A stretch of DNA of 32,497 nt from positions 1 through 32,497 of the forward strand of contig JAMPCN010000031.1 of the NCBI GenBank assembly GCA_023666125.1, in the 5' to 3' direction. The first letter of the stretch is position 1. Every line of letters begins with the position of its first letter. Made by a program: the position numbers and the translations under genes. Shown in pieces: positions 7,939 through 26,113 of the stretch. Source of the DNA: Bacillus sp. (in: firmicutes) (GTDB taxonomy: Bacteria; Bacillota; Clostridia; Lachnospirales; Lachnospiraceae). Below the pieces are notes generated by a model. That model was not told where the DNA came from. It made no database searches and was given only the letters and a program-made list of their open reading frames with translations.

Positions 7939-7954
7939 ATTTTCACCCCCATTT

Positions 7955-11060: not shown

Positions 11061-11080
11061 AAATGTAAATCATTTTATAT

Positions 11081-11107: not shown

Positions 11108-11121
11108 ACTCTATCTTCTAG

Positions 11122-11202: not shown

Positions 11203-11224
11203 TCAAACACCGCCTTTCCCTTAA

Positions 11225-12157: not shown

Positions 12158-12177
12158 AAATGTTTCTCCTTTGCTTT

Positions 12178-12903: not shown

Positions 12904-12922
12904 ATGTTTTCCCTCTCTTTTC

Positions 12923-13855: not shown

Positions 13856-13905
13856 ATGGTTTCCTCCTCGTTTCTATTGTCTGATATCATTGACTCATTT
13901 AGTCA

Positions 13906-14838
13906 TTACGCTGTCTTTACAAGCTGGTATGCCCTGTCAATCAAAGGGTTGCCGTCCATCGTGCGGATAAACAGGTTTTCGTTATAGTTTGGCGTCCTCC
14001 GTAAGGGTCTTGCGTGGGTTGCAAAATCCGACACGGCGTTGATAAGTCGGTAAGCGTTGTTCCCGACTTCCTGCAAATCCGGCGCATCATAATACCGTCT
14101 TTTCATGTCTTCACGCAGTTTCAAGATATTTTTCTCCTGTATGGCGGTTGCGTCTTTTTCTACGGGAAGCAGCTGTTCAATATACTCTTTTATCTGCCCG
14201 TCCGATATTTTCTGCCCGCGCAGGCGTTCAATCTCTTTTCCGAGGCTGTCCATATATTCCTCCGCCATAAACAGCGTCTCCTCCGCTTCCTGTATCTTAT
14301 CCATGATGTTTCCCGTATGTATCATAGACCATGAGCGTTTTGCCGTGTGCAGGGCAAGGTTGAGCGTATTGTTGCACACCACCCTTACCGGCGTAAGCGC
14401 CGCTTTGACTGCTCCGCTCCCGTCATGCATATTGGAAAAGACCAGATACGGGGAAATCCGCTCCCCTGAAATGATGTATTCCCTCGGAAGCCTTGCAAGG
14501 AGCCATACGCGCCTGCCCTCCTGCAAGGAACCCGCCGTTTCATAGCGCACGCCGCTTCCAAGCAGGGCGTCCGTAAAAGCGAACGCTTCCCTGTTCTGGA
14601 TAATCTTATAACGCCCGCTCACAACGCCGAGCGTCTTTCTGTCGCTGCCGCGGATGTTGGCTTTATATCCCGGAATCATGCTGCCGTCATCCGTATAGAT
14701 GGGTTCCTGCGCTACCTGCCAGTCCAGTCCTGCCATCTGTAAGGCTTCTGCGGAAGAAAGCGCTTCCTCCACCTTTGTTCCTAAACCGTGCCACGGTTTT
14801 TCCCTTGTGTAAAACATTGTTTCTACGTTTGCCGCCAT
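13906..14838 (-). CDS. DUF932 phage/plasmid-like protein
   Basis: 310 aa with the landmarks of DUF932: MFYTREKPWHGLGTKV at the start, LGVVSGRYKIIQNREAF, and VRVVCNNTLNLAL in the centre, with a helical C-terminal half ending in RAYQLVKTA. The family is frequent on phages and conjugative plasmids next to recombination genes, and its molecular function is not known. AGGAG precedes the ATG at eight to nine bases. It is the first gene of the recombination operon; the region upstream to the terminator at 14983 holds its promoter, which I could not place with certainty. Confidence 0.85.
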   Translation of the reverse strand: MAANVETMFYTREKPWHGLGTKVEEALSSAEALQMAGLDWQVAQEPIYTDDGSMIPGYKANIRGSDRKTLGVVSGRYKIIQNREAFAFTDALLGSGVRYETAGSLQEGRRVWLLARLPREYIISGERISPYLVFSNMHDGSGAVKAALTPVRVVCNNTLNLALHTAKRSWSMIHTGNIMDKIQEAEETLFMAEEYMDSLGKEIERLRGQKISDGQIKEYIEQLLPVEKDATAIQEKNILKLREDMKRRYYDAPDLQEVGNNAYRLINAVSDFATHARPLRRTPNYNENLFIRTMDGNPLIDRAYQLVKTA

Positions 14839-14982
14839 AATTTTCTCTCCTTTTCTTTTTCTTATTTCGCGTTTCCTGCCGCATTTTTATTCCGCTCTAG
14901 CACCGCGATATTCTATCCTCTGCTCCTCCTTTCCCTAAATATTTATGCTGCGGCTCTAAAAATGCTTTTTAGAAACAAAATA

Positions 14983-15009
14983 AGGGAGAACCCGAAAAGG
15001 ATTCTCCCT
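14983..15009 (-). terminator. Intrinsic terminator after the small-ORF pair
   Basis: AGGGAGAA and TTCTCCCT pair around an 11-base loop. On the minus strand the stem is followed by a T-rich run (TATTTTGTTT). It lies 24 bases after the stop codon at 15033 and separates this unit from the DUF932 operon. Confidence 0.65.
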
Positions 15010-15032
15010 CAACTATCTGTTTACTGTTTCAA

Positions 15033-15254
15033 TCATAAAGTATGATACCACTCGTCAAGCATCTGACGCCGTTTACTCAATTCTCTATTGAGTAACTCTT
15101 CCAAGGCTTTTTCCTCAGCTTTAAATTGTTTTTCTAATTCTCTGTGCTGCTTTATACATTCTCTGTCAGTCTTACGTTTCCATCTCCTGTAATCGCTCTG
15201 CATACACATTCTAAAAATTGATGCACTTATTGTTGTTCCTATAATAGTTCCCAT
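15033..15254 (-). CDS. Small protein with hydrophobic start and coiled coil, unknown
   Basis: 73 aa, not recognised. A short hydrophobic N-terminus (MGTIIGTTISASIF) is followed by a long charged helix rich in Lys, Glu and Arg (about 24-65, with EKQFKAEEKALEELLNREL). GAGG lies six bases before the ATG. It follows the 66-aa gene by 34 bases and shares its promoter. Confidence 0.6.
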   Translation of the reverse strand: MGTIIGTTISASIFRMCMQSDYRRWKRKTDRECIKQHRELEKQFKAEEKALEELLNRELSKRRQMLDEWYHTL

Positions 15255-15288
15255 AAATTACCTCACTTTCTTCGTACTTATTGTACGA

Positions 15289-15489
15289 CTAAAAATTTTT
15301 AGTTTCCGTTTTTACAACATTGTCAATCATTAAACAGGCTTTTTCGATGACTGCTTCAAAAGGACAAAGCACTGTAACCGATATCATTTTATCCTGTGCC
15401 GCTGTCTTTTCCATATCATACATGACATCACACAGTCCTCTTAACAGCATTTTTACTTCTTCCAGTTCATCTATACTCTTTAACTCCAT
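15289..15489 (-). CDS. Small helical protein, unknown
   Basis: 66 aa, not recognised. An all-helical acidic protein (MELKSIDELEEVKMLLRGLC at the start), probably a small cytosolic protein. GGGAGGAAGAT precedes the ATG. It is the first gene behind a promoter that carries the dyad shared by four transcription units of this element, so it is part of the same regulon as the TerB operon and the GTPase. Confidence 0.6.
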   Translation of the reverse strand: MELKSIDELEEVKMLLRGLCDVMYDMEKTAAQDKMISVTVLCPFEAVIEKACLMIDNVVKTETKNF

Positions 15490-15536
15490 ATCTTCCTCCC
15501 TTCGCTTACATTAGAAAATTTATATAGTACAGATTT

Positions 15537-15569
15537 ATTCTACAATCCGGCTATGACATCTTTTGTCAT
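15537..15569 (-). promoter_or_regulatory. Shared-dyad promoter 1 (small-ORF pair)
   Basis: On the minus strand ATGACAAAAGATGTCAT (15553-15569) is an inverted repeat with a five-base spacer. The -10-like TAGAAT (15537-15542) begins 27 bases after the start of the dyad, with TG directly before it. No good -35 hexamer is seen at normal spacing, so the dyad sits where an activator or repressor would act. This is the most diverged of the four copies. Confidence 0.6.
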
Positions 15570-15600
15570 TATGATAACTTTTTCTGCATTCACGCAAAAA

Positions 15601-15629
15601 TCCGCAGATGGATTTCTCTCATCTGCGGA
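15601..15629. terminator. Bidirectional terminator after the WYL regulator
   Basis: TCCGCAGATG and CATCTGCGGA form a perfect 10-bp stem with a nine-base loop, 19 bases past the WYL stop codon. A-run before and T-rich run after the stem give terminator form on both strands. Confidence 0.8.
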
Positions 15630-15647
15630 AATGCTTTTTCTTTTCTC

Positions 15648-16661
15648 TTATTCATATTTTTTCACCATTTGCAGCAAGGTTTCTTTCATTTCTGTACGAA
15701 AAGACTCCGGTTTTAACACTTCTACCATCTCTCCCTGACTAAGCAGCCACATTAAAATTCCTTTTCCGTATACTTCTGCTTCAATAATGCTGCTGTCGTT
15801 GGTTGTGTTGATTATCTTTGCCGTGGGAAGTCTGTCCAAAATGGCTTCCACGCTTTTACCGCTATACCGGAATTGCAGTCTGACAAGTTCTCCGGCATAC
15901 ATAAACTGGATGCGCTTACGAAATTCCCCCTCTTCAAAACGGTTTGCATAAGGAATCTGAAATTTTTCACCCAATTCTTTATATGACTTTATCCTGTCAA
16001 TCCTAAATACAGTCGGATAATCATACTGCCGGACATATTCCCCCTGCTCATTCTTCTCTACTATGTAGGCATTCAAGTAAAAATAGTATTCGGAAAATAA
16101 AAGCGCCACCGGCTGTATACAGCGTTTTACCGGGTTTCCCGAATCCACCTGCCTGTAATAGATAATCTCTAAAAGATTACATTGCTTGATTTCACTTCCA
16201 AGCTCCCATAGTTTATCTTTAATATGCGACTTATGATGCAGTTCCACATAATGGTATCTTTCATTGGCAATCAATTCTGCCGCTATCTTCATGCTCCCTT
16301 TGGGCGCACAGCCAAGCAGTAGCTTGTCCAAAATTGTCATAATTTCTTTTTTGGTAAATGCACGGCTCTCTAAGAGGATTTTACTGACTGCCAGAATTTC
16401 GCTGTTATCCATGAACGCGCTTTCGCTGCCTGTCATAACAAATCCTTTTTTATTCCTGTCATATGTAACCGTTCTGGTATCTGCGGCATCCGTTACGCTG
16501 CGCTCCGCCAGAAATACACGGATGTCGTCAATATCACGCTGAATGGAGCGTTCATCCACACCATGCTTTTTGGCTTCTTCGGATTTGTTTATTGTTTTTC
16601 CCTCACATAAGCGCACATAGATATCCAGAGTACGGATGTTTTTGGATGGTTTGGGGTTCAT
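15648..16661 (-). CDS. WYL-domain transcriptional regulator
   Basis: 337 aa. The N-terminal winged helix (about 8-60, with EAKKHGVDERSIQRDIDDI) is followed by a WYL domain (about 145-225, with CNLLEIIYYRQ and an AYIVEKN strand) and a C-terminal extension (WCX-like, about 240-330). WYL proteins sense ligands such as nucleic acids or nucleotides, and several repress antiviral operons (CapW, BrxR). AAAGGAG lies before the ATG and TATAAT-like sequence is found just upstream, so it has its own promoter although it lies downstream of the TerB operon. It is a candidate controller of the four shared-dyad promoters; that link is inference. Confidence 0.9.
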   Translation of the reverse strand: MNPKPSKNIRTLDIYVRLCEGKTINKSEEAKKHGVDERSIQRDIDDIRVFLAERSVTDAADTRTVTYDRNKKGFVMTGSESAFMDNSEILAVSKILLESRAFTKKEIMTILDKLLLGCAPKGSMKIAAELIANERYHYVELHHKSHIKDKLWELGSEIKQCNLLEIIYYRQVDSGNPVKRCIQPVALLFSEYYFYLNAYIVEKNEQGEYVRQYDYPTVFRIDRIKSYKELGEKFQIPYANRFEEGEFRKRIQFMYAGELVRLQFRYSGKSVEAILDRLPTAKIINTTNDSSIIEAEVYGKGILMWLLSQGEMVEVLKPESFRTEMKETLLQMVKKYE

Positions 16662-16738
16662 GAAAGGCTCCTTTATATTATATATAATTTCAAATTCTGC
16701 AAATATCCTAAACTATCTTTGCTATCCTTTCATCATCA

Positions 16739-17767
16739 TTATGCCGCCAAATTATCCAATACCTCTTTAGAATCAGCTATAGACTTATCAATTTCACGCG
16801 TATTGATTTTATTCATTTCTTCATCATTTTCTGCTTTTTCTACCAAATTTACTTTACACATTCTATAAAGAAGTCCAACCAATAATACGGAGTTTTGTGT
16901 TGCCAGCTTTTCCTTTTCAGAAAATTCGTTCCAATCCGTTTTATGAAGTTTTTCCACAGCATTAGAAACATATGAAAAACTGTCTAAATACTTATCATAT
17001 GCTTTTTGTATAGCATTGTTATATTTTACTGCTGTACTTTGTAATTCTTCCAGATAACTACAGGATTTATTGATAGTTTCTTCCGCTCTTTTCATCTGGC
17101 TCCATGCTTCATCCGCCTTATTGGATAAGCTTTTCCCGGTTGCATTAAAAATAACGCCGCCAACAAGCAATCCTACGCCTAATGTTGCCGCGCCCAGCAT
17201 AGATGTTCCTAGTGCAATTCCGCCACCGCCTGCGGAAATCGCACCACCGCCTAATGCCGCAAGTGTTGCATTTGTAGCCGCTGCACCACTAAGAGTTCCA
17301 ATCGCAGTTCCGGTTGAAGCAGTTCCAAGTGTCATAACCGCTGCGTATGTTGCTCCTGCTGCCGCAATGCCGCCAGCAGTGCCAGACGCCGCTCCCCCCA
17401 TACCTCCTAATAAAACTCCTGCTCCAACAGAAACCTTTTTTAATTCTTCTTTATCATATTTAGGTAAAGTTACTCCATTGCGCTCATATTCTTTAAATTG
17501 AGGACGGTTTTGTATTTTGTCAATCACATCTGAAAATTCTTCAAATCCTTTTAAGATAGTAAGTTCCAACTCTCCTAATTTATCCATCTCCGCATTAGCC
17601 GCATTGCTGCATTCTTCAAATTTTGCTATGTTTCGCTTATGCCGGTTGTCGGCAGCTTTCTGTGTATCATTTGCTTCTTTCATTTTAACGGCTCCTGAAA
17701 TTCCGCTCCCTATGCCTGTAGCCCCGGCTATTGCGCCTCCTATTCCTAATATTAATGGTAATGGCAT
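16739..17767 (-). CDS. Glycine-zipper membrane protein, candidate pore former
   Basis: 342 aa, not assigned to a family. It starts with a Gly/Ala-rich hydrophobic helix (MPLPLILGIGGAIAGATGIG), continues with a charged helical part (30-105), and then has a long Gly/Ala/Thr-rich hydrophobic region (about 113-210) with many GxxxG-like steps. The C-terminal 130 residues are a helical, coiled-coil-like domain. This layout suits a protein that inserts into the membrane, as in helical pore-forming toxins or effectors. GGAGGGATAAAAAC precedes the ATG. It is the last gene of the TerB operon, four bases after the cysteine-cluster gene. The pore function is inferred from composition only. Confidence 0.65.
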   Translation of the reverse strand: MPLPLILGIGGAIAGATGIGSGISGAVKMKEANDTQKAADNRHKRNIAKFEECSNAANAEMDKLGELELTILKGFEEFSDVIDKIQNRPQFKEYERNGVTLPKYDKEELKKVSVGAGVLLGGMGGAASGTAGGIAAAGATYAAVMTLGTASTGTAIGTLSGAAATNATLAALGGGAISAGGGGIALGTSMLGAATLGVGLLVGGVIFNATGKSLSNKADEAWSQMKRAEETINKSCSYLEELQSTAVKYNNAIQKAYDKYLDSFSYVSNAVEKLHKTDWNEFSEKEKLATQNSVLLVGLLYRMCKVNLVEKAENDEEMNKINTREIDKSIADSKEVLDNLAA

Positions 17768-17771
17768 GTTT

Positions 17772-18023
17772 TTATCCCTCCAATTTCTTTAGTTTTTGAC
17801 ATTCTTTTTCATTTAAGTGATAATAGTCCTCTAAATTCATTATTTGACTAAAAAATACTTCATAACACTCATCAACTCTGCATAATAGCGGTCGTTCAGT
17901 ATATATGGAACAAAGATTTCCCGACAAGTATTTGCAAATTCCATCCCCCCTGTCTAACTCTTTATAAAGGCTTGACTTATCAAGATTTCTACAACAGCAT
18001 CCACAGCAATCACAATGAAACAT
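17772..18023 (-). CDS. YkgJ-type cysteine-cluster protein
   Basis: 83 aa. The pattern HCDCCGCCCRNL, then GICKYLSGNLCSIYTERPLLCR, matches the YkgJ/UPF0153 zinc- or iron-sulfur-binding family, whose members are often tied to modification or redox functions but are poorly known. This is a short member consisting of little beyond the metal cluster. It is two bases after the upstream gene and four bases before the glycine-zipper gene, so tightly co-translated; a metal-dependent partner or maturation factor for its neighbours is possible. Confidence 0.75.
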   Translation of the reverse strand: MFHCDCCGCCCRNLDKSSLYKELDRGDGICKYLSGNLCSIYTERPLLCRVDECYEVFFSQIMNLEDYYHLNEKECQKLKKLEG

Positions 18024-18025
18024 CC

Positions 18026-19351
18026 TTATTCAAACACCAGCGTTGCATTTTTATTTGACATATGTGCTTCAAAATCCCCCTCCCACGGTTTTTTCCACCC
18101 GAGCCTGTCAAATGTATCCAATAACATTTGGTTTAATTCCTCTTGTGTTTTTGCTGTTGTAAATTCCTTTATTAACTGATTATATTGCTCTGTTTCTTTT
18201 TTAAATGTCTCAATATCAATTAATTCCAGTTCATGCAGATAGACTAATAAGGCTTCATTAATACGCTTAAAGGCTTCAATCTGTTTCTGCAAGGCATTAG
18301 TCAACCCAATTCTGATACAAACTTCTTTTAATACAAGCGTCACGAATCTAAACCAAGCGATTAAATTCAAACGCATAAAGAATGCAAGGAAATTTCCACC
18401 GGAACGGACTGAACGGACTCCCGCATCAATTCCATTTATGACACACAGAGTTCCATTGCCAAACAGCAGCATGACTCTCAAACTCTCATGCTTCTGTATC
18501 GGTATACATTCTTCTAAAGGCATACCATATTGATAATAGCGTCTAAGCGACCATATCAAACGAATAGATAAATCTGTGATAATAACCGGCACTGCTGTTG
18601 CCATACCAAACCTGAAATCATATCCCTCTTGAAAGGCGCGTATGGCAATCGTTGCAAGGTCTTGTCTGTCTTTCCCTACTTGGAATTTTCCAAACTTACA
18701 GAATTGAAAAAGTTCATAAAATGGTATTACTACACCGCTTCCTCTTCCTGCGTTTCCTCTGCTTCCGGAACTTCCTGCAATATCTGACATAATATGCCCG
18801 AACCAGTTTGCAATGCCACAGAATAACTTAGCAATGAAATTTCCGCCCTGTAATTCAAAGGTATCACTATTTATAGTAACTAATTGTCCATTTGCTATAA
18901 AAGATGATGTAGATGTAAACTGGTTCAATACGGAAAAAAATAAACCAACAATATCCGGAGCGTGTGATAATGACATCATGTGATGATTTTTAGTAGACAT
19001 CGTAAAAAGATTTCCGACATCTGCCGTATGTCTTTGGTCATAATTTACTTTAAAATTTTTTTCTAAAAATCCAATCGCACTGCCTACATTCCCCTCTTGT
19101 CCTGCTCTTGGGTTCCATCCATTTAATTTGGCAAACCCTTTTACCGCATTATCCACCTGCGCATCTGTCCAGTTTACTAATTTGCTTTCTCCCGGCGCGC
19201 CTACCAGAAATATTTCTATCATCCCGCCAATGGCTCCACAGGCAACTGCGGTCAGATAGTCATATTTATCACACTTATCTTTATCTTTCAGCAATTTCCT
19301 GTTTTCTGCGGAGTTTTCTATAATCGGGTATTGCGTTTCAAGCATGTCCAC
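18026..19351 (-). CDS. Large membrane-associated protein of the TerB operon, unknown
   Basis: 441 aa, not recognised. GTG at 19351 or ATG at 19345 could start it. Hydrophobic stretches occur near residues 33-50 (AVACGAIGGMIEIFLVG), 135-145, and 325-350 (FLAFFMRLNLIAWFRFVTLV), interspersed with amphipathic helices; the C-terminal 90 residues are charged and helical. Glycine/serine-rich loops (SDIAGSSGSRGNAGRGSG near 195-212) separate the parts. Placed between the TerB-like and cysteine-cluster genes with minimal gaps, it probably acts with both at the membrane. No enzyme motif is visible. Confidence 0.65.
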   Translation of the reverse strand: MDMLETQYPIIENSAENRKLLKDKDKCDKYDYLTAVACGAIGGMIEIFLVGAPGESKLVNWTDAQVDNAVKGFAKLNGWNPRAGQEGNVGSAIGFLEKNFKVNYDQRHTADVGNLFTMSTKNHHMMSLSHAPDIVGLFFSVLNQFTSTSSFIANGQLVTINSDTFELQGGNFIAKLFCGIANWFGHIMSDIAGSSGSRGNAGRGSGVVIPFYELFQFCKFGKFQVGKDRQDLATIAIRAFQEGYDFRFGMATAVPVIITDLSIRLIWSLRRYYQYGMPLEECIPIQKHESLRVMLLFGNGTLCVINGIDAGVRSVRSGGNFLAFFMRLNLIAWFRFVTLVLKEVCIRIGLTNALQKQIEAFKRINEALLVYLHELELIDIETFKKETEQYNQLIKEFTTAKTQEELNQMLLDTFDRLGWKKPWEGDFEAHMSNKNATLVFE

Positions 19352-19384
19352 TATACATTATCCTCACTTCTTCATCATTATCTG

Positions 19385-19789
19385 TCACTCACATACAGCC
19401 GCACGCAGTTCTTTACAAACCGCAAGATAAATTTCTAACAAACTGTTATATTGGCTTAACACATCCTCTTTTACATTCATTTTTTTCACAAGCATCTTCA
19501 TAAAATCTTTTTCTTTCTCATCATATACTCCATCAGCCTTTATTAGTCCTAATACTTCCAAAACAATAATTTTTTTCTCTACCTCGTCAGCCTGTGCGTT
19601 TAATGAATGCACTACTTCATCCAGCTTTTCTACATTTTCGGGAATATGCTCTGCAATATTCATTTCATGACAGTAAGCATAAATCATATCCTTTTCTTCT
19701 TCTGCAAAAATTTCATTTGCTAAAGCAGCATGAACACATACCTTTAAAAATAACTCCTTATTAGATTCCTGCAATAAATTCAAAAACAT
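19385..19789 (-). CDS. TerB-like acidic helical protein
   Basis: 134 aa, all-helical and acidic. It has the two repeated signatures of TerB-type domains: hydrophobic helix, then acidic loop, as in ALANEIFAEEEKDMIYAYC (about 24-42) and GLIKADGVYDEKEKDFMKML (about 86-105). Such domains bind divalent metals and are often membrane-linked parts of stress or conflict systems. Lead gene of a four-gene operon; the next gene starts 33 bases after its stop. GGAGGATTACAA precedes the ATG, and a shared-dyad promoter lies about 50 bases upstream. Confidence 0.7.
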   Translation of the reverse strand: MFLNLLQESNKELFLKVCVHAALANEIFAEEEKDMIYAYCHEMNIAEHIPENVEKLDEVVHSLNAQADEVEKKIIVLEVLGLIKADGVYDEKEKDFMKMLVKKMNVKEDVLSQYNSLLEIYLAVCKELRAAVCE

Positions 19790-19836
19790 TTGTAATCCTC
19801 CTTTTCTTTTGTTGTAACATACCTATGATTTACTTC

Positions 19837-19869
19837 ATCATACACCCAGATATTGACATAATCTGTCAT
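19837..19869 (-). promoter_or_regulatory. Shared-dyad promoter 2 (TerB operon)
   Basis: Minus strand: ATGACAGATTATGTCAA (19853-19869), then TATGAT (19837-19842) 21 bases after the ATGACA arm, preceded directly by TG. The bases just upstream (TTTTGAGA) match those at the GTPase and 320-aa gene promoters. The rest of the gap, 19870-20010, shows no gene or signal I can support. Confidence 0.7.
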
Positions 19870-20010
19870 TCTCAAAATTTCTTTCATATCCTTATCAATA
19901 CCGCAGTTCCCCTTTCTTCTCCTTTCCCTGATGCTTCCTTTTGGATATTTTGAAAAACATCTTTCAATGCTTTTTATTCATATCCTATTTCATTTCATTA
20001 TACGATATGC

Positions 20011-20040
20011 TACATCTTATTGCAACAAAAATTAGATGTA
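20011..20040 (+). promoter_or_regulatory. Inverted repeat upstream of the XRE gene
   Basis: TACATCT (20011-20017) and AGATGTA (20034-20040) form a dyad with a 16-base centre, about 90 bases before the XRE start. A related half-site (TTAGATATAT) lies near 20058. It is a plausible operator for this regulator. Confidence 0.4.
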
Positions 20041-20129
20041 TCAAATATCATTTCAGCATTTATTAGATATATAAAATCTCAAACTTTCTTATATAATATT
20101 CTATAATCTTATAGTAAGGTGGTGAAGCT

Positions 20130-20447
20130 ATGCTCGAAGATGATTTTGTTGAAAGAATTATTTCTTTACGAACTAAGAAAAATGTCTCTGCACGGGAAAT
20201 GAGTCTTGCTCTCGGTCAGAATGGCAGCTATATCAACCGCATAGAAAATAAACTGACGCTTCCCTCTCTACAGGCTTTCTTTTATATTTGCGAGTATTTT
20301 CAGATTTCTCCAAAGGAATTTTTTGATGAAGATAATCCAAATCCCATTAAAATAAATGAAATTGTGGAAGAATTAAAAAAAATGGATGATTTTCAATTAG
20401 ATACTATTCAAGCAGTTATTAATGGGCTGAATCATAGAGCCAAATAA
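20130..20447 (+). CDS. XRE-family transcriptional regulator
   Basis: 105 aa. A single helix-turn-helix domain of the Cro/CI type (about 5-65): IISLRTKKNVSAREMSLALG, then GSYINRIENKLTLPSLQAFF, followed by YFQISPKEFFDE. The short C-terminus (ELKKMDDFQLDTIQAVINGL) is the common tail of small Clostridia regulators of this type. AAGGTGGTG precedes the ATG and a TATAAT-like box is found about 30 bases further up. It is the only plus-strand gene within the cargo and is divergent from the TerB operon, so it might control that region or its own transcription. Confidence 0.9.
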   Translation: MLEDDFVERIISLRTKKNVSAREMSLALGQNGSYINRIENKLTLPSLQAFFYICEYFQISPKEFFDEDNPNPIKINEIVEELKKMDDFQLDTIQAVINGLNHRAK

Positions 20448-20470
20448 GTTTAAAATACTTATTTGGCTCT
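20436..20470. terminator. 14-bp stem at the XRE stop codon
   Basis: AGAGCCAAATAAGT pairs perfectly with ACTTATTTGGCTCT around a seven-base loop; the XRE stop codon is inside the stem. It sits between two convergent genes and may end transcription from both sides, though a T-run is lacking. Confidence 0.6.
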
Positions 20471-20520
20471 AAAGTTGTCACAAAGACATCTGCAACATTA
20501 CAGACGCCTTTCATATCATT

Positions 20521-20805
20521 TTATGAAACTTTTAACAAATTCACTTCCCGGAGCAATTCCACACAATCCAGAAAACCTTGCTTATAGGTCATTGCTCCAT
20601 AAAAGGCGCCGCTTTCGATATGACTGTTAATCAGTCTAAATACCATCTTATACTGCCTTTCTGATAGATTTAACTGATTTAACAGCTCTGTCTGCTTCTG
20701 TATTTTATCTTGTATGCTGATATATTCTTTATTTTGCAATACAGCATCATCCATTCCCTCATTAACAGAATATCCGGCAATGACATCAAATACTTTTTTT
20801 CTCAT
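20521..20805 (-). CDS. Small helical protein, possibly DUF6809-like
   Basis: 94 aa from the ATG at 20805, chosen because AAAGG lies seven bases upstream. Helical: VFDVIAGYSVNEGMDDAVL, then KEYISIQDKIQKQTELLNQL, and a C-terminal AMTYKQGFLDCVELLREV. The pattern resembles short Lachnospiraceae proteins of the DUF6809 kind, but I am not sure of the family. A broken copy of its first 20 residues occurs at 24927-24984, so the gene was duplicated within the element. It lies just past the GTPase terminator. Confidence 0.6.
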   Translation of the reverse strand: MRKKVFDVIAGYSVNEGMDDAVLQNKEYISIQDKIQKQTELLNQLNLSERQYKMVFRLINSHIESGAFYGAMTYKQGFLDCVELLREVNLLKVS

Positions 20806-20845
20806 CACATATCCTTTCCCATTCACTAATTCATGTTTAACCTAA

Positions 20846-20888
20846 AAAGAATGGCTTAACTGATTATTTTTCAGCAAAACCATTCTTT
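20846..20888 (-). terminator. Terminator after the repeat GTPase
   Basis: AAAGAATGG pairs with CCATTCTTT across a 25-base loop; on the minus strand the stem runs into TTTTTAGG. It starts 18 bases after the GTPase stop codon. Confidence 0.55.
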
Positions 20889-20905
20889 CCCCGTAGGACT
20901 CTATA

Positions 20906-22624
20906 TTAGAAAATATGATTAAATATCCCTCTGATGCCCCCTACGAATGCACCAATCACACTGCCTACTACCATTCCCGGTGCGCCTAAGATAAAAAAAC
21001 CTGCCGCGCCTCCCTGATTTATCCCGTCTGCTATATAATCAGCCATGCTGACAAGGCTCTCCTTTACGCCCTCATTATAATCCATATCGTCATCATTGTG
21101 CCTATACTGCTCTGAATCTGTATTCATTCCTCCAAAAACTGCCGCCCGCTTTTCTGCCGGAAGAGCGTTGAGGATATAATACAGAAGTTTTGACAGGTTA
21201 TAAGGATGTACCACATCTCCGGAATCTTCCTCATATCCGGCGCAGTAATAAATCGGCGTAATATCCATTCCGGTATCTTCTTTGATACGCTCTTTGATAG
21301 AGACCACTTTTTCCTCTAAAAACTTTGTAAGCATCTCATCCGGCTCATTTTTTTCATAATCCCAATGCCTGCCTGTTTTCATGGCAATATCTGCCTGATT
21401 CAGCGCAATCAGGATACGACCTGTCTCATCTTTTAATTCCGGAATAATTACCTCATTCAACATCTGATAGGATGTTCCTAAATCCCTTGTGGAACTGTCC
21501 AGAATAACCAATACCAAATCAATCAGGGCATTTCCATCCTTATCTTGTTCTCTAAGCAGTTCGGTAATCACTTCTTTGTGAGGTTCGTCAATCTCCGTAC
21601 CATCTCCCAGTCCCGGTGTATCCCACAAAATCAGGTTCCCGATTCTGTAGCGTTCAATATCCCTCGTCTCCGGGTCTGCCTTGCTTCCCACTTTGGCAAT
21701 TTCCACATATTCATCTTCTCTGTTACAGGAAAACAAAGCATTAATAGTTGAACTTTTTCCACATCCGGTCGCCCCCACTAACATAATATTTGTTTCCGTA
21801 TTACAAAGTTTCCTAAGCCGTAGCAGCATTTCCTGTTTCTTATCCTCTGCTACATCACTTTTTAAAATTTCCGCTTCTAATGCCTCACAGATGTTATCCA
21901 TGCTTTCTCTCGTAAAAATTTCCCTTTTTTCTACACTTAATAATCTTGATAATATTGTAGGCATAATGTTACAAAGTTTCCTAAGCGATATTAGCATAGT
22001 CTGCTTCGTCTCCTCTGCCACAGCACTTTTTAAAATTTCCGCTTCCAATGCCTTACAGATGTTATCCATGTTCTCTTTTCTTTCTCTTATAGAAACATCC
22101 TCTTCCTCTTTCTCTTTTGTAACTATAATATTACAAAGTTTCCTAAGCCGCACCAACATAGTCTGCTTCGTCTCCTCTGCCTCAGCACTTTTTAAAATTT
22201 CCGCTTCCAATGCCTCACAGATGTTATCCATGCTTTCTCTTATAAAAATCTCCTCTTCCTTTTTTCCTACACCAAATAATGTTGAATCCATCATAGTACA
22301 AAGTTCTCTAAGCTGTTCCAGCATAGTCTGCTTCGTCTCCTCTGCCTCAGCACTTCTTAAAATTCTCGTTTCCAATGCCTTATGGAGGTTATATATTCTT
22401 TCTCCTATAGAAATATCCCCTTCCCATTTTTTTCTACTAAGAAATGTTATGTCCATATTATTACAAAGTTTCTTAATCCGTTCCAACATATTCTGCTTTG
22501 TCTCCTCTGCCGCATCACTTCTTAAAATTTCCGCTTTCAATGCCTCACAGATGTTATCCATGCTCTCTCTTAAAAAAGTTTTCCTTTTTTCCACACTGTA
22601 TAATCTTGAGAATATTCTAGTCAT
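20906..22624 (-). CDS. IRG/YeeP-like GTPase with five N-terminal repeats and glycine-zipper tail
   Basis: 572 aa. Residues 1-276 are five tandem repeats of about 55 aa, each with an ICEALEAEILKS-type helix, an AEETKQTML helix and an LRKLCN end. The GTPase domain follows: G1 GATGCGKSS (284-292), G3 DTPGLGD (335-341), G4 NQAD (409-412), related to the GIMAP/IRG/YeeP (YfjP) group. An acidic linker (about 500-517) leads to a hydrophobic Gly-rich tail (536-565, GGAAGFFILGAPGMVVGSVIG) that could sit in or on a membrane. GGAGAGG precedes the ATG. It shares its promoter dyad with the TerB operon, and the glycine-zipper protein of that operon has a similar kind of membrane region. A dynamin-like membrane-acting role is inference. 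Confidence 0.88.
   Translation of the reverse strand: MTRIFSRLYSVEKRKTFLRESMDNICEALKAEILRSDAAEETKQNMLERIKKLCNNMDITFLSRKKWEGDISIGERIYNLHKALETRILRSAEAEETKQTMLEQLRELCTMMDSTLFGVGKKEEEIFIRESMDNICEALEAEILKSAEAEETKQTMLVRLRKLCNIIVTKEKEEEDVSIRERKENMDNICKALEAEILKSAVAEETKQTMLISLRKLCNIMPTILSRLLSVEKREIFTRESMDNICEALEAEILKSDVAEDKKQEMLLRLRKLCNTETNIMLVGATGCGKSSTINALFSCNREDEYVEIAKVGSKADPETRDIERYRIGNLILWDTPGLGDGTEIDEPHKEVITELLREQDKDGNALIDLVLVILDSSTRDLGTSYQMLNEVIIPELKDETGRILIALNQADIAMKTGRHWDYEKNEPDEMLTKFLEEKVVSIKERIKEDTGMDITPIYYCAGYEEDSGDVVHPYNLSKLLYYILNALPAEKRAAVFGGMNTDSEQYRHNDDDMDYNEGVKESLVSMADYIADGINQGGAAGFFILGAPGMVVGSVIGAFVGGIRGIFNHIF
21797..22624 (-). repeat. Five tandem ~165-bp coding repeats
   Basis: The N-terminal half of the GTPase gene consists of five units, at residues about 1-56, 57-111, 112-166, 167-220 and 221-276. 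Long stretches are nearly identical at DNA level, for example the segment coding MDNICEALEAEILKS in units 1, 3, 4 and 5. Unit 2 is the most diverged. High identity implies recent duplication and possible copy-number change. Confidence 0.88.
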
Positions 22625-22655
22625 AATGTTTCCTCTCCCTTTCTGTACGTTTTTT

Positions 22656-22712
22656 CTAATTTTGTTTTCTGTAATAAGCTGCTATAAGTCTTTTATTCAA
22701 TTTCCATTTCAT
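22656..22712 (-). CDS. 18-aa leader peptide candidate
   Basis: Short ORF MKWKLNKRLIAAYYRKQN with stop, 31 bases before the GTPase start and inside its presumed leader. The ATG has a near-perfect AAGGAGG site five bases upstream, better than that of the GTPase. It is very basic. It may be a leader peptide, or the ribosome site may be fortuitous. Confidence 0.35.
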   Translation of the reverse strand: MKWKLNKRLIAAYYRKQN

Positions 22713-22765
22713 TCTTCCCTCCTTTTTCTTCTACAGCCTGCTTCCTGTCCATATTTTCTATGACA

Positions 22766-22798
22766 AGTATACAGCCTGTGCGTGACATATTTTGTCAT
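22766..22798 (-). promoter_or_regulatory. Shared-dyad promoter 3 (repeat GTPase)
   Basis: Minus strand: ATGACAAAATATGTCAC (22782-22798), then TATACT (22766-22771) 21 bases after the ATGACA arm, preceded by TG. Upstream TTTTGAGG matches the other copies. The transcript would have a leader of about 135 bases. Confidence 0.7.
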
Positions 22799-22826
22799 CC
22801 TCAAAATATATTTTATCGGACGCAAA

Positions 22827-22856
22827 AAATCCCGGAGTAGATTCTCTCCGGGATTT
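22827..22856 (-). terminator. Strong terminator after the 320-aa gene
   Basis: AAATCCCGGAG and CTCCGGGATTT form a perfect 11-bp stem, eight-base loop; on the minus strand the stem ends in a T-run of six. It is ten bases past the stop codon. A closely similar hairpin follows the Rpn gene (23956-23981). Confidence 0.85.
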
Positions 22857-22865
22857 GTATTACTA

Positions 22866-23828
22866 TCATTTATAAAGCCTGTCCAGTTCTTTTACGCTAT
22901 ACTTATGCAGCAGCGTATAAAAATCCATGTTTCCTTTCCGCACATCCCGAATCAGTTTAAGTACCTGCTGGTCATCCGGCAGTTCTTCATCCGGACAGAA
23001 AGAATAATTGAGAACTTCATCTCCACATCCGAAGCCGTCCGTATAATCAAACCAATCACGCTCACTGTTATATGTGTCCAGAGATATCCAATTCTCAATC
23101 CGCTCTCTTTGCTCCGGTCTCTCCCAGTCACAGGAGATTACCCCATAATAAGGCATGTCAAAAAAGTCATCCACTCTAACAATATCTCCCTTTTTAAACG
23201 GCAGCGGAACAAATATTTTATATATACGGTCGTCCGACAAGCCAAACTCCAAATCCTCATCACACTGCCCCCTGCTAATAGAGGAACCGACTGATACCAT
23301 CTGCATATTAGTATCGAAAATATAGTAATCACTGTCATGACATTTATTTTCCATCTGAATACGTTCTATCCTCCCGTATGTCTCTACATCTTTCAAATCT
23401 TCGTCATCCAGATAATGCTTCTTTTCATACTCCAAAAATGCGTATGCCTTTTCATAACTGGCAAAATAGGCGCTATCCCCATGGTCATATCCTTTTTCGT
23501 AAAAAGATGCCTCAAATATAACATTTTCCGTGCAGTTTCTATCTTCCAGAATTTTATTCCATGTCCATATTGTTTTCCGCACAACTTCACGAAATGAAAT
23601 ATTTGTCTCGTAGTGTGGATATGCCGGTGGGGAAAAATTCACACTCTCGTCACCGAACTCATTTTCCTGATAATGGTCTAAAAGATACTGTAATGCCTCC
23701 ATTTTCTCATCCACTGTTCTTTTCATACTGTTGCTGATTAATACCGCCCATTCTGCCGGCGTAAACTGCGTGTCTTTGTTGTACTCCCGGATATCCGGTG
23801 AGTCTATGAATTTTAAAAAATCGTACAT
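22866..23828 (-). CDS. Orphan 320-aa acidic protein, unknown
   Basis: Not recognised as a named family. The protein is acidic and rich in Asp, Glu, Tyr and Phe; the N-terminal third is helical (FTPAEWAVLISNSMKRTVDE), the centre looks like beta strands (YGRIERIQMENKCHDSDYYI, then YKIFVPLPFKKGDIVRVDDF), the last consisting of a KGDIV turn like small barrels. No membrane segment, signal peptide or catalytic motif is evident. It is a single-gene unit with its own shared-dyad promoter and strong terminator, so it belongs to the common regulon and might be an effector, sensor or immunity-like partner; that is a guess. Confidence 0.75.
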   Translation of the reverse strand: MYDFLKFIDSPDIREYNKDTQFTPAEWAVLISNSMKRTVDEKMEALQYLLDHYQENEFGDESVNFSPPAYPHYETNISFREVVRKTIWTWNKILEDRNCTENVIFEASFYEKGYDHGDSAYFASYEKAYAFLEYEKKHYLDDEDLKDVETYGRIERIQMENKCHDSDYYIFDTNMQMVSVGSSISRGQCDEDLEFGLSDDRIYKIFVPLPFKKGDIVRVDDFFDMPYYGVISCDWERPEQRERIENWISLDTYNSERDWFDYTDGFGCGDEVLNYSFCPDEELPDDQQVLKLIRDVRKGNMDFYTLLHKYSVKELDRLYK

Positions 23829-23874
23829 AAGTTTCCCTTTCCTTTCATTGCATAATACCTATTGTCCTTTATTT

Positions 23875-23907
23875 ACAATACACTATGGCATTGACATATA
23901 ATGTCAT
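23875..23907 (-). promoter_or_regulatory. Shared-dyad promoter 4 (320-aa gene)
   Basis: Minus strand: ATGACATTATATGTCAA (23891-23907), then TATTGT (23875-23880) 21 bases after the ATGACA arm, preceded by TG. Upstream TTTCGAGA matches promoters 2 and 3 closely. The gene starts about 40 bases downstream. Confidence 0.7.
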
Positions 23908-23955
23908 TCTCGAAATTTTTTATATTCTCTTACTGCTTTCCTTTTAGGCACAAAA

Positions 23956-23981
23956 AATCCCGAAGTGGGTTCTCCGGGATT
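23956..23981 (-). terminator. Terminator after the Rpn-type gene
   Basis: AATCCCGAAG and CTCCGGGATT pair with one G-U on a six-base loop; on the minus strand a run of six T follows. It lies about 60 bases after the stop codon and is a relative of the hairpin at 22827-22856, with similar flanking sequence on both sides. Confidence 0.75.
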
Positions 23982-24044
23982 CGCATTACTATCATTTTTA
24001 TTATATATTATTGTCTGCATCTAACATATACTGTGCGGCTGCTT

Positions 24045-24866
24045 CTACCTTTTCCCTAACCTCAGGAAATATTCCTGTGCCATCTGCATGGAAATACTCA
24101 ATTTATTTTGCAGTCTTTCCAAAATATCGTTTTCAGAAAGTCCAAATTCAAAACCACTTTCAATAATCTCTTCTGCCCTGCCCTCTATTTTGCCTTTTTC
24201 CATATTTTCTTGGTCGCGCATTAATAGTGTCATATATTCATGCCTCCATTCCCTGTTTTTCCTTGCCTCTTTTACCGCTTCTTCTAATCTCTGCACGAAA
24301 TCATCTTCTGGCTCTTTCCCGGCTACATAATCAAGAAATGCCTTTAATTCCTTACTGACATCATCCTGACTGCCGTCGGCATTTAAGAATATCTTCACTG
24401 CCTCGTCTTTTAAAGTAATACTGGTATCTTCCTTACAGATATTCTCAAAAGTATAAATATGCTTTCCCTTACCGAAAATATCAAAATGACAGATAAAAAT
24501 TACATAGCTTGGTTTCAGTTTCTTATAGGACTGCCCTTTATCTATCATCTGCAAGTCTATCATACTCTGGTAATAACGGCTTCTTTTCGGCAGTTCCTTT
24601 GTATCTGCAACCTGCATTTCAATATCATAGACCGTGCCTTTACCATCCCTCACATATACATCCAGTCTGACGCTTTTAGCGTCTGCATCAGGTCTTATTG
24701 CTTTCTGCGCTTCCGGGTATTCTACATGGTCTATTTCCAAATCCGGCAGGATTCTTTGCAATAGTTCCTTACATAGTTCTGCATCCTGCATGACTTTTCC
24801 GAACATAAAATCATTGGAAATTCTTAATGATTCCCATACTGTACTAAATTCTTTCTCATTTTCCAT
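24045..24866 (-). CDS. Rpn-family PD-(D/E)XK nuclease/transposase-like protein
   Basis: 273 aa. It matches the Rpn/PDDEXK_2 family, small DNases that promote RecA-independent recombination and in some cases act in phage defence. Landmarks: FSTVWESLRISNDFMFGKVM at the start, RLDVYVRD and IEMQ (the acidic Asp and E-x-Q metal site), and YYQSMIDLQMIDKG, then SYVIFICHFDIF. The C-terminal third (after about 200) is a charged helix with REWRHEYMTLLMRDQEN, typical of the family. It has its own sigma-A-like promoter, without the shared dyad. The frame ends in LRLGKR; another frame stays open for about 20 codons past this, so a small frameshift at the 3' end is possible. Confidence 0.88.
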   Translation of the reverse strand: MENEKEFSTVWESLRISNDFMFGKVMQDAELCKELLQRILPDLEIDHVEYPEAQKAIRPDADAKSVRLDVYVRDGKGTVYDIEMQVADTKELPKRSRYYQSMIDLQMIDKGQSYKKLKPSYVIFICHFDIFGKGKHIYTFENICKEDTSITLKDEAVKIFLNADGSQDDVSKELKAFLDYVAGKEPEDDFVQRLEEAVKEARKNREWRHEYMTLLMRDQENMEKGKIEGRAEEIIESGFEFGLSENDILERLQNKLSISMQMAQEYFLRLGKR

Positions 24867-24891
24867 CTTGCGTTTTCCTCTCTTTAATTAT

Positions 24892-24920
24892 ATTATACAA
24901 ATCCTTTTTTTAAAATACAA
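24892..24920 (-). promoter_or_regulatory. Promoter of the Rpn-type gene
   Basis: Minus strand: TTGTAT (24915-24920), 17-base spacer, TATAAT (24892-24897) with TG directly upstream. The start codon follows about 26 bases later, behind AGAGAGG. Confidence 0.65.
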
Positions 24921-24926
24921 TAATAT

Positions 24927-24984
24927 TTTGTCCAGTCCCTCATTGACAGAATATTCTGTCATAACATCAAATATGTTTTTCCAT
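24927..24984 (-). pseudogene. Broken partial copy of the 20521-20805 gene
   Basis: Behind a good ribosome site (AAAGGAGTG) an ATG opens a frame that stops after five codons. In another frame the DNA reads NIFDVMTEYSVNEGLDK, closely like VFDVIAGYSVNEGMDD of the gene at 20521-20805. It looks like a decayed 5' copy with a one-base frameshift; the rest of the gene is missing. Confidence 0.6.
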
Positions 24985-24997
24985 CCTTTTCACTCCT

Positions 24998-25414
24998 TTA
25001 CTCTTTTTCATCCTTTAGTTGCTCAAATATTGCCATTGGCAGCCTGCTTTTGCCTTCTTCGTATTTTTTATAAGTATCTAAAGAAACCCCCAGAAAGTCG
25101 GCAAACTGTTTTTGCGTCATACTACGTTTTGTTCTCGCCTCATACAGAAAAACTCCTACGTCGGCAATATCAAGAAACTTATGATACTCATTACAGAAAT
25201 AATATTTGTCCTTTCCGAAATAATCCGCAATTTTTATTAATGTATTCACCTGCATGGACTTTTCCGGATAATCAGGATTGGTATAATCAAATAATAAGTC
25301 TCTGCTCACCCCCAGTTCTTTTGCCGCTTGCAAAAAGGATATTCTATTTTCTAAAAATGTATAGCGCAGTCGATTGCTTATTTTCTTCATATCTAAATCA
25401 TTTGCTAGAAACAT
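24998..25414 (-). CDS. XRE-type regulator at the right end of the element
   Basis: About 130-138 aa. Two helix-turn-helix-like segments are visible: ISFLQAAKELGVSRDLLFDY in the first half and RSMTQKQFADFLGVSLDTYK in the second, the latter a classic Cro/CI helix pair. The start is uncertain: ATG at 25414 or 25390, or a TTG at 25465 that has GGTG upstream, only 13 bases from the element end. The first open codons reach the attachment site itself. It is read away from the end towards the cargo; after circularisation it would lie directly downstream of the recombinase gene on the same strand, so it could regulate excision. Confidence 0.75.
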   Translation of the reverse strand: MFLANDLDMKKISNRLRYTFLENRISFLQAAKELGVSRDLLFDYTNPDYPEKSMQVNTLIKIADYFGKDKYYFCNEYHKFLDIADVGVFLYEARTKRSMTQKQFADFLGVSLDTYKKYEEGKSRLPMAIFEQLKDEKE

Positions 25415-25477
25415 ACCTTTAAAAACTTTTACATGAATGACAAACCAGCCATTGGAAGTTTCCAATATATCACCATT

Positions 25478-25479
25478 GG
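25478..25479. other. Right attachment site (attR) core GG
   Basis: Right junction: element side ATATCACCATT, core GG, host side TAAATCGACGC. Joined to the left end, the empty circle would read CCATT-GG-CAATGCGATGG, with CATTG/CAATG arms around the core, a fit for a serine-recombinase attP. Confidence 0.75.
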
Positions 25480-26113
25480 TAAATCGACGCTTTTATCCAT
25501 TATTGCCGGTCTGTTAGAGGCAGAAAGCGGTGTTCTTTCTTTTCACGCGGCTTCTTCCATCGGCTATATGTTACAGCACGACCATTTGTTTGAATGGCGG
25601 ACAATTTATCAGAATGTGATACTGGGACTGGAACTGAATAAAACGATGACAAAAGAAAATACGGACTATGTGCTTCATCTTTTAAAGGAATACGGACTAT
25701 ATGCTTTTAAGGACAAAAAGCCGTCCGAACTTTCCGGCGGTATGCGCCAACGTGCCGCCCTTATCCGCACCATGGCGGTAAAACCCGATATTCTTCTACT
25801 GGATGAACCGTTCAGCGCCTTGGATTTTCAGACAAGAATGACCGTATCCGCCGATATTGGCAATATTATCAGAAGCACCGGCAAAACGGCAATTTTAATC
25901 ACGCACGACTTATCGGAAGCGATTACGCTTGCCGACAGAGTCATTGTTCTTTCGGGGCGTCCGGCCGGCGTGAAATATGAACTGCCCATCCACTTCGATA
26001 TAGCGCGCACCTCTGCCTTGTCCATACGCAGCACGGACGCTTATCAAACATATTTTAATCTTTTATGGAAGGAGTTATCCGATGATTCTTCAGACAAAGA
26101 AACAATCACTTGA
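25478..26113 (+). pseudogene. ABC transporter ATPase, 3' part, cut off by the mobile element
   Basis: The remaining 211 codons of the split ATPase: end of Walker A (GKST), Q-loop GYMLQHDHLFEW, signature LSGGMRQR, Walker B ILLLDEPFSALD and switch histidine LITHD. The family is that of nitrate/sulfonate/taurine/pyrimidine-precursor importers. An ATG inside the element (25433) is in frame but has no ribosome site and would give QYITIGKST, lacking the first P-loop glycine. The part has also lost its promoter. The intact permease gene overlaps its end by 32 bases, so polar loss of the whole transporter is expected while the element is present. Confidence 0.92.

What the first reader, a model, noticed from the sequence alone, without database searches (positions are those of the whole stretch)
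15537..23907. Four cargo promoters share one dyad at fixed distance from the -10 box
Seen: ATGACA-N5-TGTCA occurs at 15553, 19853, 22782 and 23891, each exactly 21 bases upstream of TAGAAT, TATGAT, TATACT or TATTGT with TG directly before it; three copies also share TTTTGAGA-like bases upstream. All face minus-strand cargo genes and none has a proper -35 box. Inferred: a single element-encoded regulator (WYL at 15648, or one of the two XRE proteins) turns on or off the small-ORF pair, the TerB operon, the repeat GTPase and the 320-aa gene together, making them one functional system.
Basis: partly seen in the sequence, partly recalled or inferred. Interest (0 to 1): 0.78.

Follow-up and report, generated by a model that had tools for sequence, protein, structure and literature searches.

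The report
One switch for swapped-in defence genes
Four neighbouring gene units on a bacterial mobile element carry the same short DNA switch at exactly the same place in their promoters, and related elements use it too, so it is probably the binding site of a nearby damage-sensing activator that turns on whatever phage-defence genes the element happens to carry.

Summary
TGACA-N5-TGTCA lies exactly 11 nt before a -10 hexamer (TGTC-N12-TANNNT) at four minus-strand promoters. The own genome (3.23 Mb held) has 11 such dyads; the only four with promoter spacing are these. The regulator is almost certainly the WYL protein (15648-16661). The core GACA-N5-TGTC-N12-TANNNT is present without mismatch in 20 of 27 WYL loci, 31 hits in 26 loci against 0.2 per shuffle, and directly before the WYL gene in 8 of 10 loci of 39-51% orthologs. 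It recurs in 7 of 15 held-out viral, plasmid and phage loci, reversed control 0. The XRE genes are in 2 and 0 of 26 relatives. The predicted WYL fold matches DriD best, an ssDNA-activated activator whose printed probe contains GACA-N5-TGTC and whose sites overlap the -35 at a fixed distance from the -10. PafBC promoters share TGTC-N12-TANNNT. The WYL repressors BrxR and CapW bind after or on the -10 instead. Best reading: a DriD-like WYL activator runs a mobile regulon of interchangeable, mostly defence-like cargo. Activation and ssDNA sensing are inferred. "One functional system" is not supported: the operator is conserved, the cargo is swapped.

The parts
15537..15568 (-). WYL-type promoter 1: dyad TGACA-N5-TGTCA 15554-15568, -10 TAGAAT 15537-15542; before the small-ORF pair
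   Evidence: found twice in L078, the relative whose WYL protein is 95% identical
19837..19868 (-). WYL-type promoter 2: dyad 19854-19868, -10 TATGAT 19837-19842; before the TerB/BnzB-like operon, which may run on into the WYL gene
   Evidence: a 1-mismatch site also precedes the TerB operon of L085, none that of L078
22766..22797 (-). WYL-type promoter 3: dyad 22783-22797, -10 TATACT 22766-22771; before the repeat GTPase
   Evidence: GTPase family c2 is site-driven in 6 of 7 loci that have it, two pairs of them near-copies
23875..23906 (-). WYL-type promoter 4: dyad 23892-23906, -10 TATTGT 23875-23880; before the 320-aa gene
   Evidence: family c5 is site-driven in 5 of 5 loci that have it, about 3 independent, one with a 1-mismatch site
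15648..16661 (-). WYL regulator, 337 aa: N-terminal wHTH (by model), WYL and WCX domains; predicted DriD-like activator
   Evidence: Pfam WYL and WCX; fold closest to DriD; co-occurrence with the site
15289..15489 (-). 66-aa ORF behind promoter 1
   Evidence: no Pfam match; cluster c35 driven in 2 of 2 loci, one with a 1-mismatch site
15033..15254 (-). 73-aa ORF behind promoter 1
   Evidence: cluster c34 driven in 2 of 2 loci
19385..19789 (-). TerB-like protein, 134 aa, first gene behind promoter 2
   Evidence: Pfam TerB E 1.1e-4, just under its cut-off; no PADLOC match
18026..19351 (-). BnzB-like protein, 441 aa (Bunzi defence system component)
   Evidence: PADLOC BnzB E 1.1e-130, profile positions 153-496 of 504; no BnzA among 17 window proteins scanned
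17772..18023 (-). 83-aa cysteine-cluster protein of the same operon
   Evidence: weak Pfam CxxCxxCC E 0.023; the L085 member of its cluster c19 is 54% identical to a gene annotated YkgJ family in CP103805
16739..17767 (-). 342-aa protein, PADLOC candidate PDC-M09A
   Evidence: E 1.1e-33; 63% identical homologue in the gene set behind WYL in CP103805
20906..22624 (-). GTPase, 572 aa, LeoA-like PADLOC hit, with five N-terminal repeats of about 166 nt (21799-22624)
   Evidence: MMR_HSR1 E 9.9e-11; LeoA E 6.7e-10; repeats
20521..20826 (-). 101-aa ORF that follows the GTPase
   Evidence: weak DUF6809; cluster c12 in 4 loci
22866..23828 (-). 320-aa protein of unknown family behind promoter 4
   Evidence: no Pfam, NCBIfam or PADLOC match; homologues in 4 other loci, each behind a site

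Best explanation
The dyad is the operator of the element's WYL protein, and that protein is a transcription activator of the DriD type. A dimer binds GACA-N5-TGTC, whose two halves (about -37 to -34 and -28 to -25) flank the place where sigma region 4 would meet a -35 box. These promoters have a good -10 and an A/T-rich upstream tract but no -35 box, so RNA polymerase would need the WYL protein to dock, which is why the distance to the -10 is fixed to the base. The signal is probably single-stranded DNA (or another nucleic acid) made during phage attack or DNA damage and bound by the WYL domain. Any cargo gene that acquires this promoter joins the regulon; in many loci the WYL gene itself does, giving positive feedback. 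Shown by computation: the site, its spacing, its tie to the WYL gene, the lack of a -35, the DriD-like fold. Inferred: binding, activation, the ssDNA signal and the defence function.
For: (1) Spacing: in the window and 26 WYL loci TGACA-Nx-TGTCA occurs 27 times at x=5 and at most 2 times at any other x from 0 to 15; TANNNT follows at 11 nt in 28 of 52 oriented dyads, at most 7 at any other distance. (2) GACA-N5-TGTC-N12-TANNNT: 31 in 26 loci (474 kb) against mean 0.2, maximum 1, in 20 shuffles. (3) Co-occurrence among 116 genomes: motif in 10 of 10 genomes with a WYL orthologue of at least 62% identity (the own genome included) against 18 of 106 others (Fisher p 1.6e-7); 29 of the 51 motif hits lie on the WYL contig within 16 kb of the gene. 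(4) Site directly before the WYL gene in 8 of 10 loci of 39-51% orthologs, two of them near-copies. (5) Held-out loci: 7 of 15, reversed control 0 without mismatch, 1 with one. (6) Best folds DriD E 6.4e-14, PafBC 1.4e-10, then CapW 2.3e-8, BrxR 2.2e-7. (7) DriD: consensus ATACGAC-N7-GTCGTAT, probe with GACA-N5-TGTC, sites overlap a poor -35 at constant distance from the -10 (PMC12340889). PafBC: tTGTCRgtg-8nt-TannnT = TGTC-N12-TANNNT (PMC5656591). (8) Repressors BrxR and CapW bind just after or on the -10 (PMC9122601, PMC9122588). (9) -35 lacking.
Against: No expression, binding or start-site data exist here. 5 of 27 WYL loci have no site even with 1 mismatch: L083, L089, L093, L099, L103 (L083 is a 6.4-kb contig and the match of L103 covers only 65 residues). 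Of the 43 sites, 2 lie inside ORFs of 150 aa or more and 6 have no gene assigned downstream. Of the 15 held-out loci 8 have no full site: viral L178, L180, L181 and the Clostridioides and four Lactococcus plasmid loci; three of those four Lactococcus loci keep only TGTC-N13-TATAAT before WYL, by eye. 17 of the 51 hits have no WYL gene known nearby (only L053 of these was looked at). The DriD register is my own alignment: driD fits 7 of 8 core bases, didA ties at 5 of 8 with two other placements, and bapE did not come out in the top three. Sequence search finds PafBC, BrxR and CapW but not DriD in the PDB; the fold match to DriD has low TM-scores (0.34-0.37) and rmsd of 16-18 A for the whole chain. 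The depletion of -35 matches is partly forced by the dyad itself. In the window no site lies directly before the WYL gene.
Confidence: 0.8

Rival explanations
1. The WYL protein binds the dyad but is a repressor of the BrxR/CapW kind: it blocks RNA polymerase by covering the -35 region and is released during infection.
For: BrxR and CapW, WYL proteins tied to defence genes, are repressors. The dyad covers the -35 region, where a repressor could sit. The cargo is defence-like.
Against: BrxR's site lies just after the promoter and CapW's sites overlap the -10; here the site is upstream at an invariant distance, which repression does not need. The promoters lack a -35, so there would be little basal activity to repress. 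The predicted fold scores better against DriD and PafBC.
Confidence: 0.13
2. One of the two XRE proteins (20130-20447 or 24998-25465) is the regulator.
For: Both are HTH proteins in the same stretch.
Against: By tblastn they occur in 2 and 0 of the 26 related loci, while 21 of these 26 have the site. Loci of more distant WYL proteins have it too.
Confidence: 0.02
3. The shared string is a promoter of an alternative sigma factor (TGTCA as -35-like box plus -10), and the WYL gene is only a neighbour.
For: Two conserved blocks at fixed spacing and no sigma-70 -35.
Against: The upstream block is an inverted repeat with a fixed inner spacer; the -10 is the ordinary TATAAT type; the site tracks WYL genes, including WYL genes of other subfamilies.
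Confidence: 0.03
4. Chance, or copies of one duplicated promoter.
For: The two promoter-1 type sites in L078 look like a duplication.
Against: Own-genome count, shuffles and 32 sites left after removing similar ones.
Confidence: 0.005

Closest known systems
DriD of Caulobacter crescentus (WYL activator, ssDNA-responsive; PDB 8tp8, 8tpk, 9pfv, 9pfq)
   Same: Fold (best hit); operator core GACA-N5-TGTC; operator overlaps the -35 at a fixed distance from the -10; poor -35.
   Different: DriD runs a DNA-damage set (didA, bapE, recJ, dnaG). Here the gene is on mobile DNA and its targets are interchangeable, mostly defence-like cargo. Outer bases differ (CGACA..TGTCG there, TGACA..TGTCA here). ssDNA binding untested here.
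PafBC of mycobacteria (WYL heterodimer, sigma adaptation)
   Same: TGTC-N12-TANNNT, no -35 box needed, second-best fold.
   Different: PafBC is a heterodimer whose PafB half alone reads the promoter, and it does not bind DNA without polymerase. Here the site is a full palindrome.
SiwR of Mycobacterium smegmatis
   Same: WYL activator on a palindrome between -35 and -10; needs the -26 region.
   Different: Different conserved bases (GGA at -26) and targets (DinB-like genes).
BrxR and CapW (WYL repressors of BREX and CBASS)
   Same: WYL regulator linked to phage defence genes; palindromic sites.
   Different: Repressors; sites after or on the -10; weaker fold match.
Bunzi defence system (BnzA, BnzB)
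   Same: 18026-19351 matches BnzB at E 1.1e-130; a BnzA (E 5e-128) lies three genes after WYL on Lactococcus plasmid pLLI11B.
   Different: No BnzA among 17 window proteins scanned; the BnzB-like protein matches only from profile position 153 on, and a separate TerB gene precedes it.

Membership tests
DriD-type WYL activator | wHTH + WYL + WCX architecture, DriD-like fold | tested here: met
   Pfam WYL and WCX above cut-off; DriD is the best PDB hit, E 6.4e-14. TM-scores are low (0.34-0.37), probably because the domains are set at different angles in the single-chain model.
DriD-type WYL activator | Operator core GACA-N5-TGTC | tested here: met
   against the probe printed in PMC12340889
DriD-type WYL activator | Same distance from operator to -10 | tested here: inconclusive
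   Constant here (TGTC-N12-TANNNT). That DriD's distance is also 12 rests on my alignment: driD clear, didA tied, bapE by eye only. The paper says the distance is constant and that G-14 is conserved.
DriD-type WYL activator | Non-optimal -35 under the operator | tested here: met
DriD-type WYL activator | ssDNA binding and activation of transcription | not testable with these tools
   R220 and YFY 193-195 are invariant and R223 nearly so in 28 sequences, which is compatible but no test
DriD-type WYL activator | Detectable sequence kinship with DriD | tested here: not met
   phmmer against PDB: nothing at E 1; profile finds PafBC E 1.6e-4, BrxR E 0.05, CapW E 0.85, not DriD. Hence 'works like', not 'is an orthologue of'.
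BrxR/CapW WYL repressor | Operator overlapping or downstream of the -10 | tested here: not met
   All four sites end 11 nt upstream of the -10
PafBC | TGTC-N12-TANNNT promoter without -35 | tested here: met
PafBC | Heterodimer of two WYL subunits | tested here: inconclusive
   Only one WYL match in the window, two on other contigs of the genome; dimer partners cannot be tested
Bunzi defence system | BnzB | tested here: met
Bunzi defence system | BnzA | tested here: not met
   None among 17 window proteins scanned against PADLOC

The most novel reading that the evidence does not exclude
WYL activators from Caulobacter, mycobacteria and gut Firmicutes read one promoter grammar (GACA-N5-TGTC or its right half, 12 nt before the -10). 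Mobile elements have turned it into a portable 'immune regulon': an element-borne, ssDNA-triggered activator that switches on any defence cassette bearing the operator, the reverse logic of the known WYL repressors of defence. A sibling grammar (GACA-N6-TGTC-N13-TANNNT) serves other WYL regulators of the same order.
Probability: 0.45. Interest if true: 0.82.

Novelty: new variant of a known kind. Interest (0 to 1): 0.72.

Why it matters
How bacteria keep defence genes quiet and wake them in time is largely open; the WYL regulators of defence in the papers seen here (BrxR, CapW) are repressors. If this reading holds, mobile elements carry an activator-run regulon whose members can be recognised by one 32-bp promoter signature. 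That signature would let unknown cargo (for example the 320-aa protein, site-driven in all 5 loci that have it) be nominated as defence genes, and it makes a testable, one-base-precise prediction about WYL activators in general.

Tried and rejected
The pattern with TG before the -10 was too strict: 3 of 250 genomes of the family, the own one included; L017 and L018 from it were not followed up. A Fisher test for 'motif near WYL' is void by construction (genomes without WYL cannot score) and is not used; the 'anywhere' test is 14 of 20 against 14 of 96, p 1.7e-6 (an earlier table miscounted it as 13 of 20 and 15 of 96). phmmer of the single WYL protein against the PDB gave nothing. A structure of the 320-aa protein could not be had. 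Two XRE proteins, an alternative sigma factor and chance were considered and rejected (see rivals). MerR-like action (left arm as -35 at 21 nt) was considered; I judged 21 nt too long a spacer, and the right arm is as conserved as the left.

Counts and dropped rows: 43 oriented sites became 39 after keeping one orientation per palindrome and 32 after dropping near-copies. In that set the -10 positions T-12, A-11 and T-7 are fixed by the search; the spacing tests are not conditioned on one spacing. In one search a site with one mismatch counts only if the -10 matches TATAAT in 5 of 6. L087/L095 and L086/L101 are near-copies, and L078 is close to the window; they count separately in the per-locus tallies. 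L035/L036 share one site, as do L174-L176. ORFs were called by length and overlap only, operons by gaps only. Some of the 58 loci repeat genes already held (for example L132, L144, L151). Of 18 plasmid and 4 phage hits, 6 and 1 were fetched.

Papers: only search listings, passages and one section were read: PMC12340889 passages and section 11; PMC11804915, PMC6789036, PMC5656591, PMC10693628, PMC9122588, PMC9122601, PMC11206119 passages. That no paper joins WYL to Bunzi rests (0 papers) and the listings only; most subscription papers are not in that library.


Full report
What is there. Four minus-strand promoters in the window carry TGACA-N5-TGTCA followed after exactly 11 nt by a -10 hexamer (15537-15568, 19837-19868, 22766-22797, 23875-23906). 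They precede a small-ORF pair, a TerB/BnzB-like operon, a repeat GTPase and a 320-aa gene, with the first start codon 41-42 nt after the assumed start site in three cases and 136 nt in the GTPase case. The own genome has 11 such dyads in the 3.23 Mb held, and only these four have the promoter spacing. The fifth hit is the third dyad read backwards.

Who binds it. A protein search in 116 relatives found near-full-length orthologues of the WYL protein in 20 genomes: 10 at 62% identity or more (window genome included) and 10 at 39-51%. The same 116 genomes were searched for the site: 28 have it, 51 hits, reversed control 6. All 10 genomes of the first group have it, against 18 of the other 106 (p 1.6e-7). 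29 of the 51 hits lie on the WYL contig within 16 kb of the gene, three of them second readings of a palindrome. Of the other 22, one (G251) lies about 5 kb from a more distant WYL gene that the protein search had missed, before a gene 43% identical to one that is site-driven in L101. Four more (L054, L067, L069, L077) lie beside a WYL gene of another subfamily; Pfam confirms the domain for L054 and L067, the L077 protein begins like that of L067, and of L069 only an N-terminal part is in the locus. L053 with a like site shows no WYL gene in its 3 kb. The remaining 16 hits were not followed up.

The site in WYL loci. In the window and 26 loci with up to 10-kb flanks, the inner spacer is 5 in 27 dyads and any other length from 0 to 15 in at most 2. 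TANNNT follows at 11 nt in 28 of 52 oriented dyads and at no other distance in more than 7. The shorter core GACA-N5-TGTC-N12-TANNNT occurs 31 times in the 26 loci against mean 0.2 and maximum 1 in 20 shuffles. 20 of 27 loci have at least one core site without mismatch, 22 with one mismatch allowed; L083, L089, L093, L099 and L103 have none. Of the 43 sites, 2 lie inside ORFs of 150 aa or more and 6 have no gene assigned downstream. In loci of the 39-51% orthologs the core lies directly before the WYL gene in 8 of 10, though the base outside GACA/TGTC changes. In a held-out set of 8 viral contigs, 6 plasmid stretches and 1 phage, 7 of 15 loci have it (5 distinct sites or site sets), reversed control 0 without mismatch and 1 with one mismatch. 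The Clostridioides plasmid and three of four Lactococcus plasmids keep only the right half, TGTC with N12 or N13 before TATACT or TATAAT, just before WYL (by eye).

What it drives. The 320-aa family c5 is behind a site in 5 of 5 loci that have it, the GTPase family c2 in 6 of 7, the TerB gene in 2 of 3, and the WYL gene is in a site-driven operon in 9 of 27 (operons judged by gaps only, so read-through is assumed, and near-copies are counted). Other genes behind sites differ from locus to locus: a HerA/DUF87-containing operon, dynamin-like proteins, a kinase with PIN and zinc-finger parts, a 464-aa family. In the window the TerB unit includes a BnzB-like protein (E 1.1e-130) and a PDC-M09A candidate. 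Related sets stand right behind WYL elsewhere: in a Clostridioides plasmid a 519-aa protein (PDC-M40B hit; 30% identical to the window's BnzB-like protein over 144 aa), a YkgJ-like protein and a 63% identical PDC-M09A; in [Eubacterium] eligens a BnzB-like protein (E 3.5e-21), then a dynamin; on a Lactococcus plasmid a BnzA (E 5e-128). The cargo is therefore defence-like by resemblance; no defence was shown.

How it probably works. The dyad spans about -38 to -24, so it covers the -35 region; a TTGACA-like box is lacking (28 of 32 sites have at most 2 of 6 matches, against about 49% of shuffled sites), and the sigma-70 scan lists none of the four promoters. Upstream lies an A/T-rich tract. Exact spacing, absent -35 and upstream A/T tract are what an activator that contacts RNA polymerase needs and a repressor does not. 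The predicted WYL structure (mean pLDDT 82.9, pTM 0.57) matches DriD best, then PafBC, then the repressors. DriD binds ATACGAC-N7-GTCGTAT, its printed probe contains GACA-N5-TGTC, its sites overlap poor -35 boxes at one distance from the -10, and it is switched on by ssDNA (PMC12340889). PafBC promoters read tTGTCRgtg-8nt-TannnT, that is TGTC-N12-TANNNT (PMC5656591), and PafBC too is switched on by ssDNA (PMC11804915). My alignment of the printed DriD promoters gives N12 with G at -14 for driD and, among three tied placements, didA; bapE fits only by eye. BrxR and CapW, the WYL repressors of defence, bind after or on the -10. I therefore read the system as a DriD-like activator with a regulon of interchangeable cargo.

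What is shown and what is not. Shown by computation: site, spacing, tie to WYL, absence of -35, fold, variety of cargo. Inferred: binding by WYL (about 0.95), activation rather than repression (about 0.85), ssDNA as the signal (about 0.5), defence as the purpose (about 0.7).

A sibling pattern. In 58 loci around WYL-domain genes of the order, TGACA-N6-TGTCA occurs 9 times and TGACA-N5-TGTCA once; a TATAAT-like box follows GACA-N6-TGTC at 13 nt in 12 of 32 oriented dyads, at most 6 at any other distance. WYL regulators of this order thus seem to share TGACA half-sites, with spacing set by subfamily.

Verdict. Observation confirmed, regulator assigned to WYL, 'on' more likely than 'off', 'one functional system' replaced by 'one regulon with swapped-in parts'. 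New variant of a known kind.

Noticed in passing
L104, L105, L113, L119, L121, L122, L135, L139, L141 (sites printed): Other WYL-family loci of the order have TGACA-N6-TGTCA, often with a TATAAT-like box 13 nt after TGTC: a sibling operator geometry of a different WYL subfamily.
   Followed up: partly
   Followed up: partly
window 20906-22624: The GTPase has five imperfect repeats of about 55 codons at its N-terminus; the relative L078 has a 400-aa version, so repeat number may vary.
   Followed up: no
window 11225-14838: Beside the small-ORF pair stand a DUF5688, a Rad52-like, a YqaJ recombinase and a DUF932 gene, with homologues in 7-10 of 27 loci: a recombination module, probably core genes of the element.
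   Followed up: no
window about 5750-25430: A large serine recombinase gene (6145-7938) and the cargo lie between argininosuccinate lyase (4346-5749) and ABC transporter genes (25433-26900); in L162 homologues of these two flanks are neighbours, as at an empty site.
   Followed up: partly
L182, L184, L185, L187: On plasmids of [Eubacterium] eligens and Lactococcus (pNP40 among them) WYL stands near zinc-ribbon genes and, in some, dynamin-like or Bunzi genes; these Lactococcus plasmids have TGTC-N13-TATAAT half-sites before WYL (by eye).
   Followed up: partly
L188: A Streptococcus suis phage record has a WYL gene (31% identity) with two core sites, one before a helicase gene annotated DnaB, one just after WYL.
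   Followed up: no
L078 11095 and 11753: The promoter-1 stretch is present twice in this relative, two sites about 660 nt apart.
   Followed up: no
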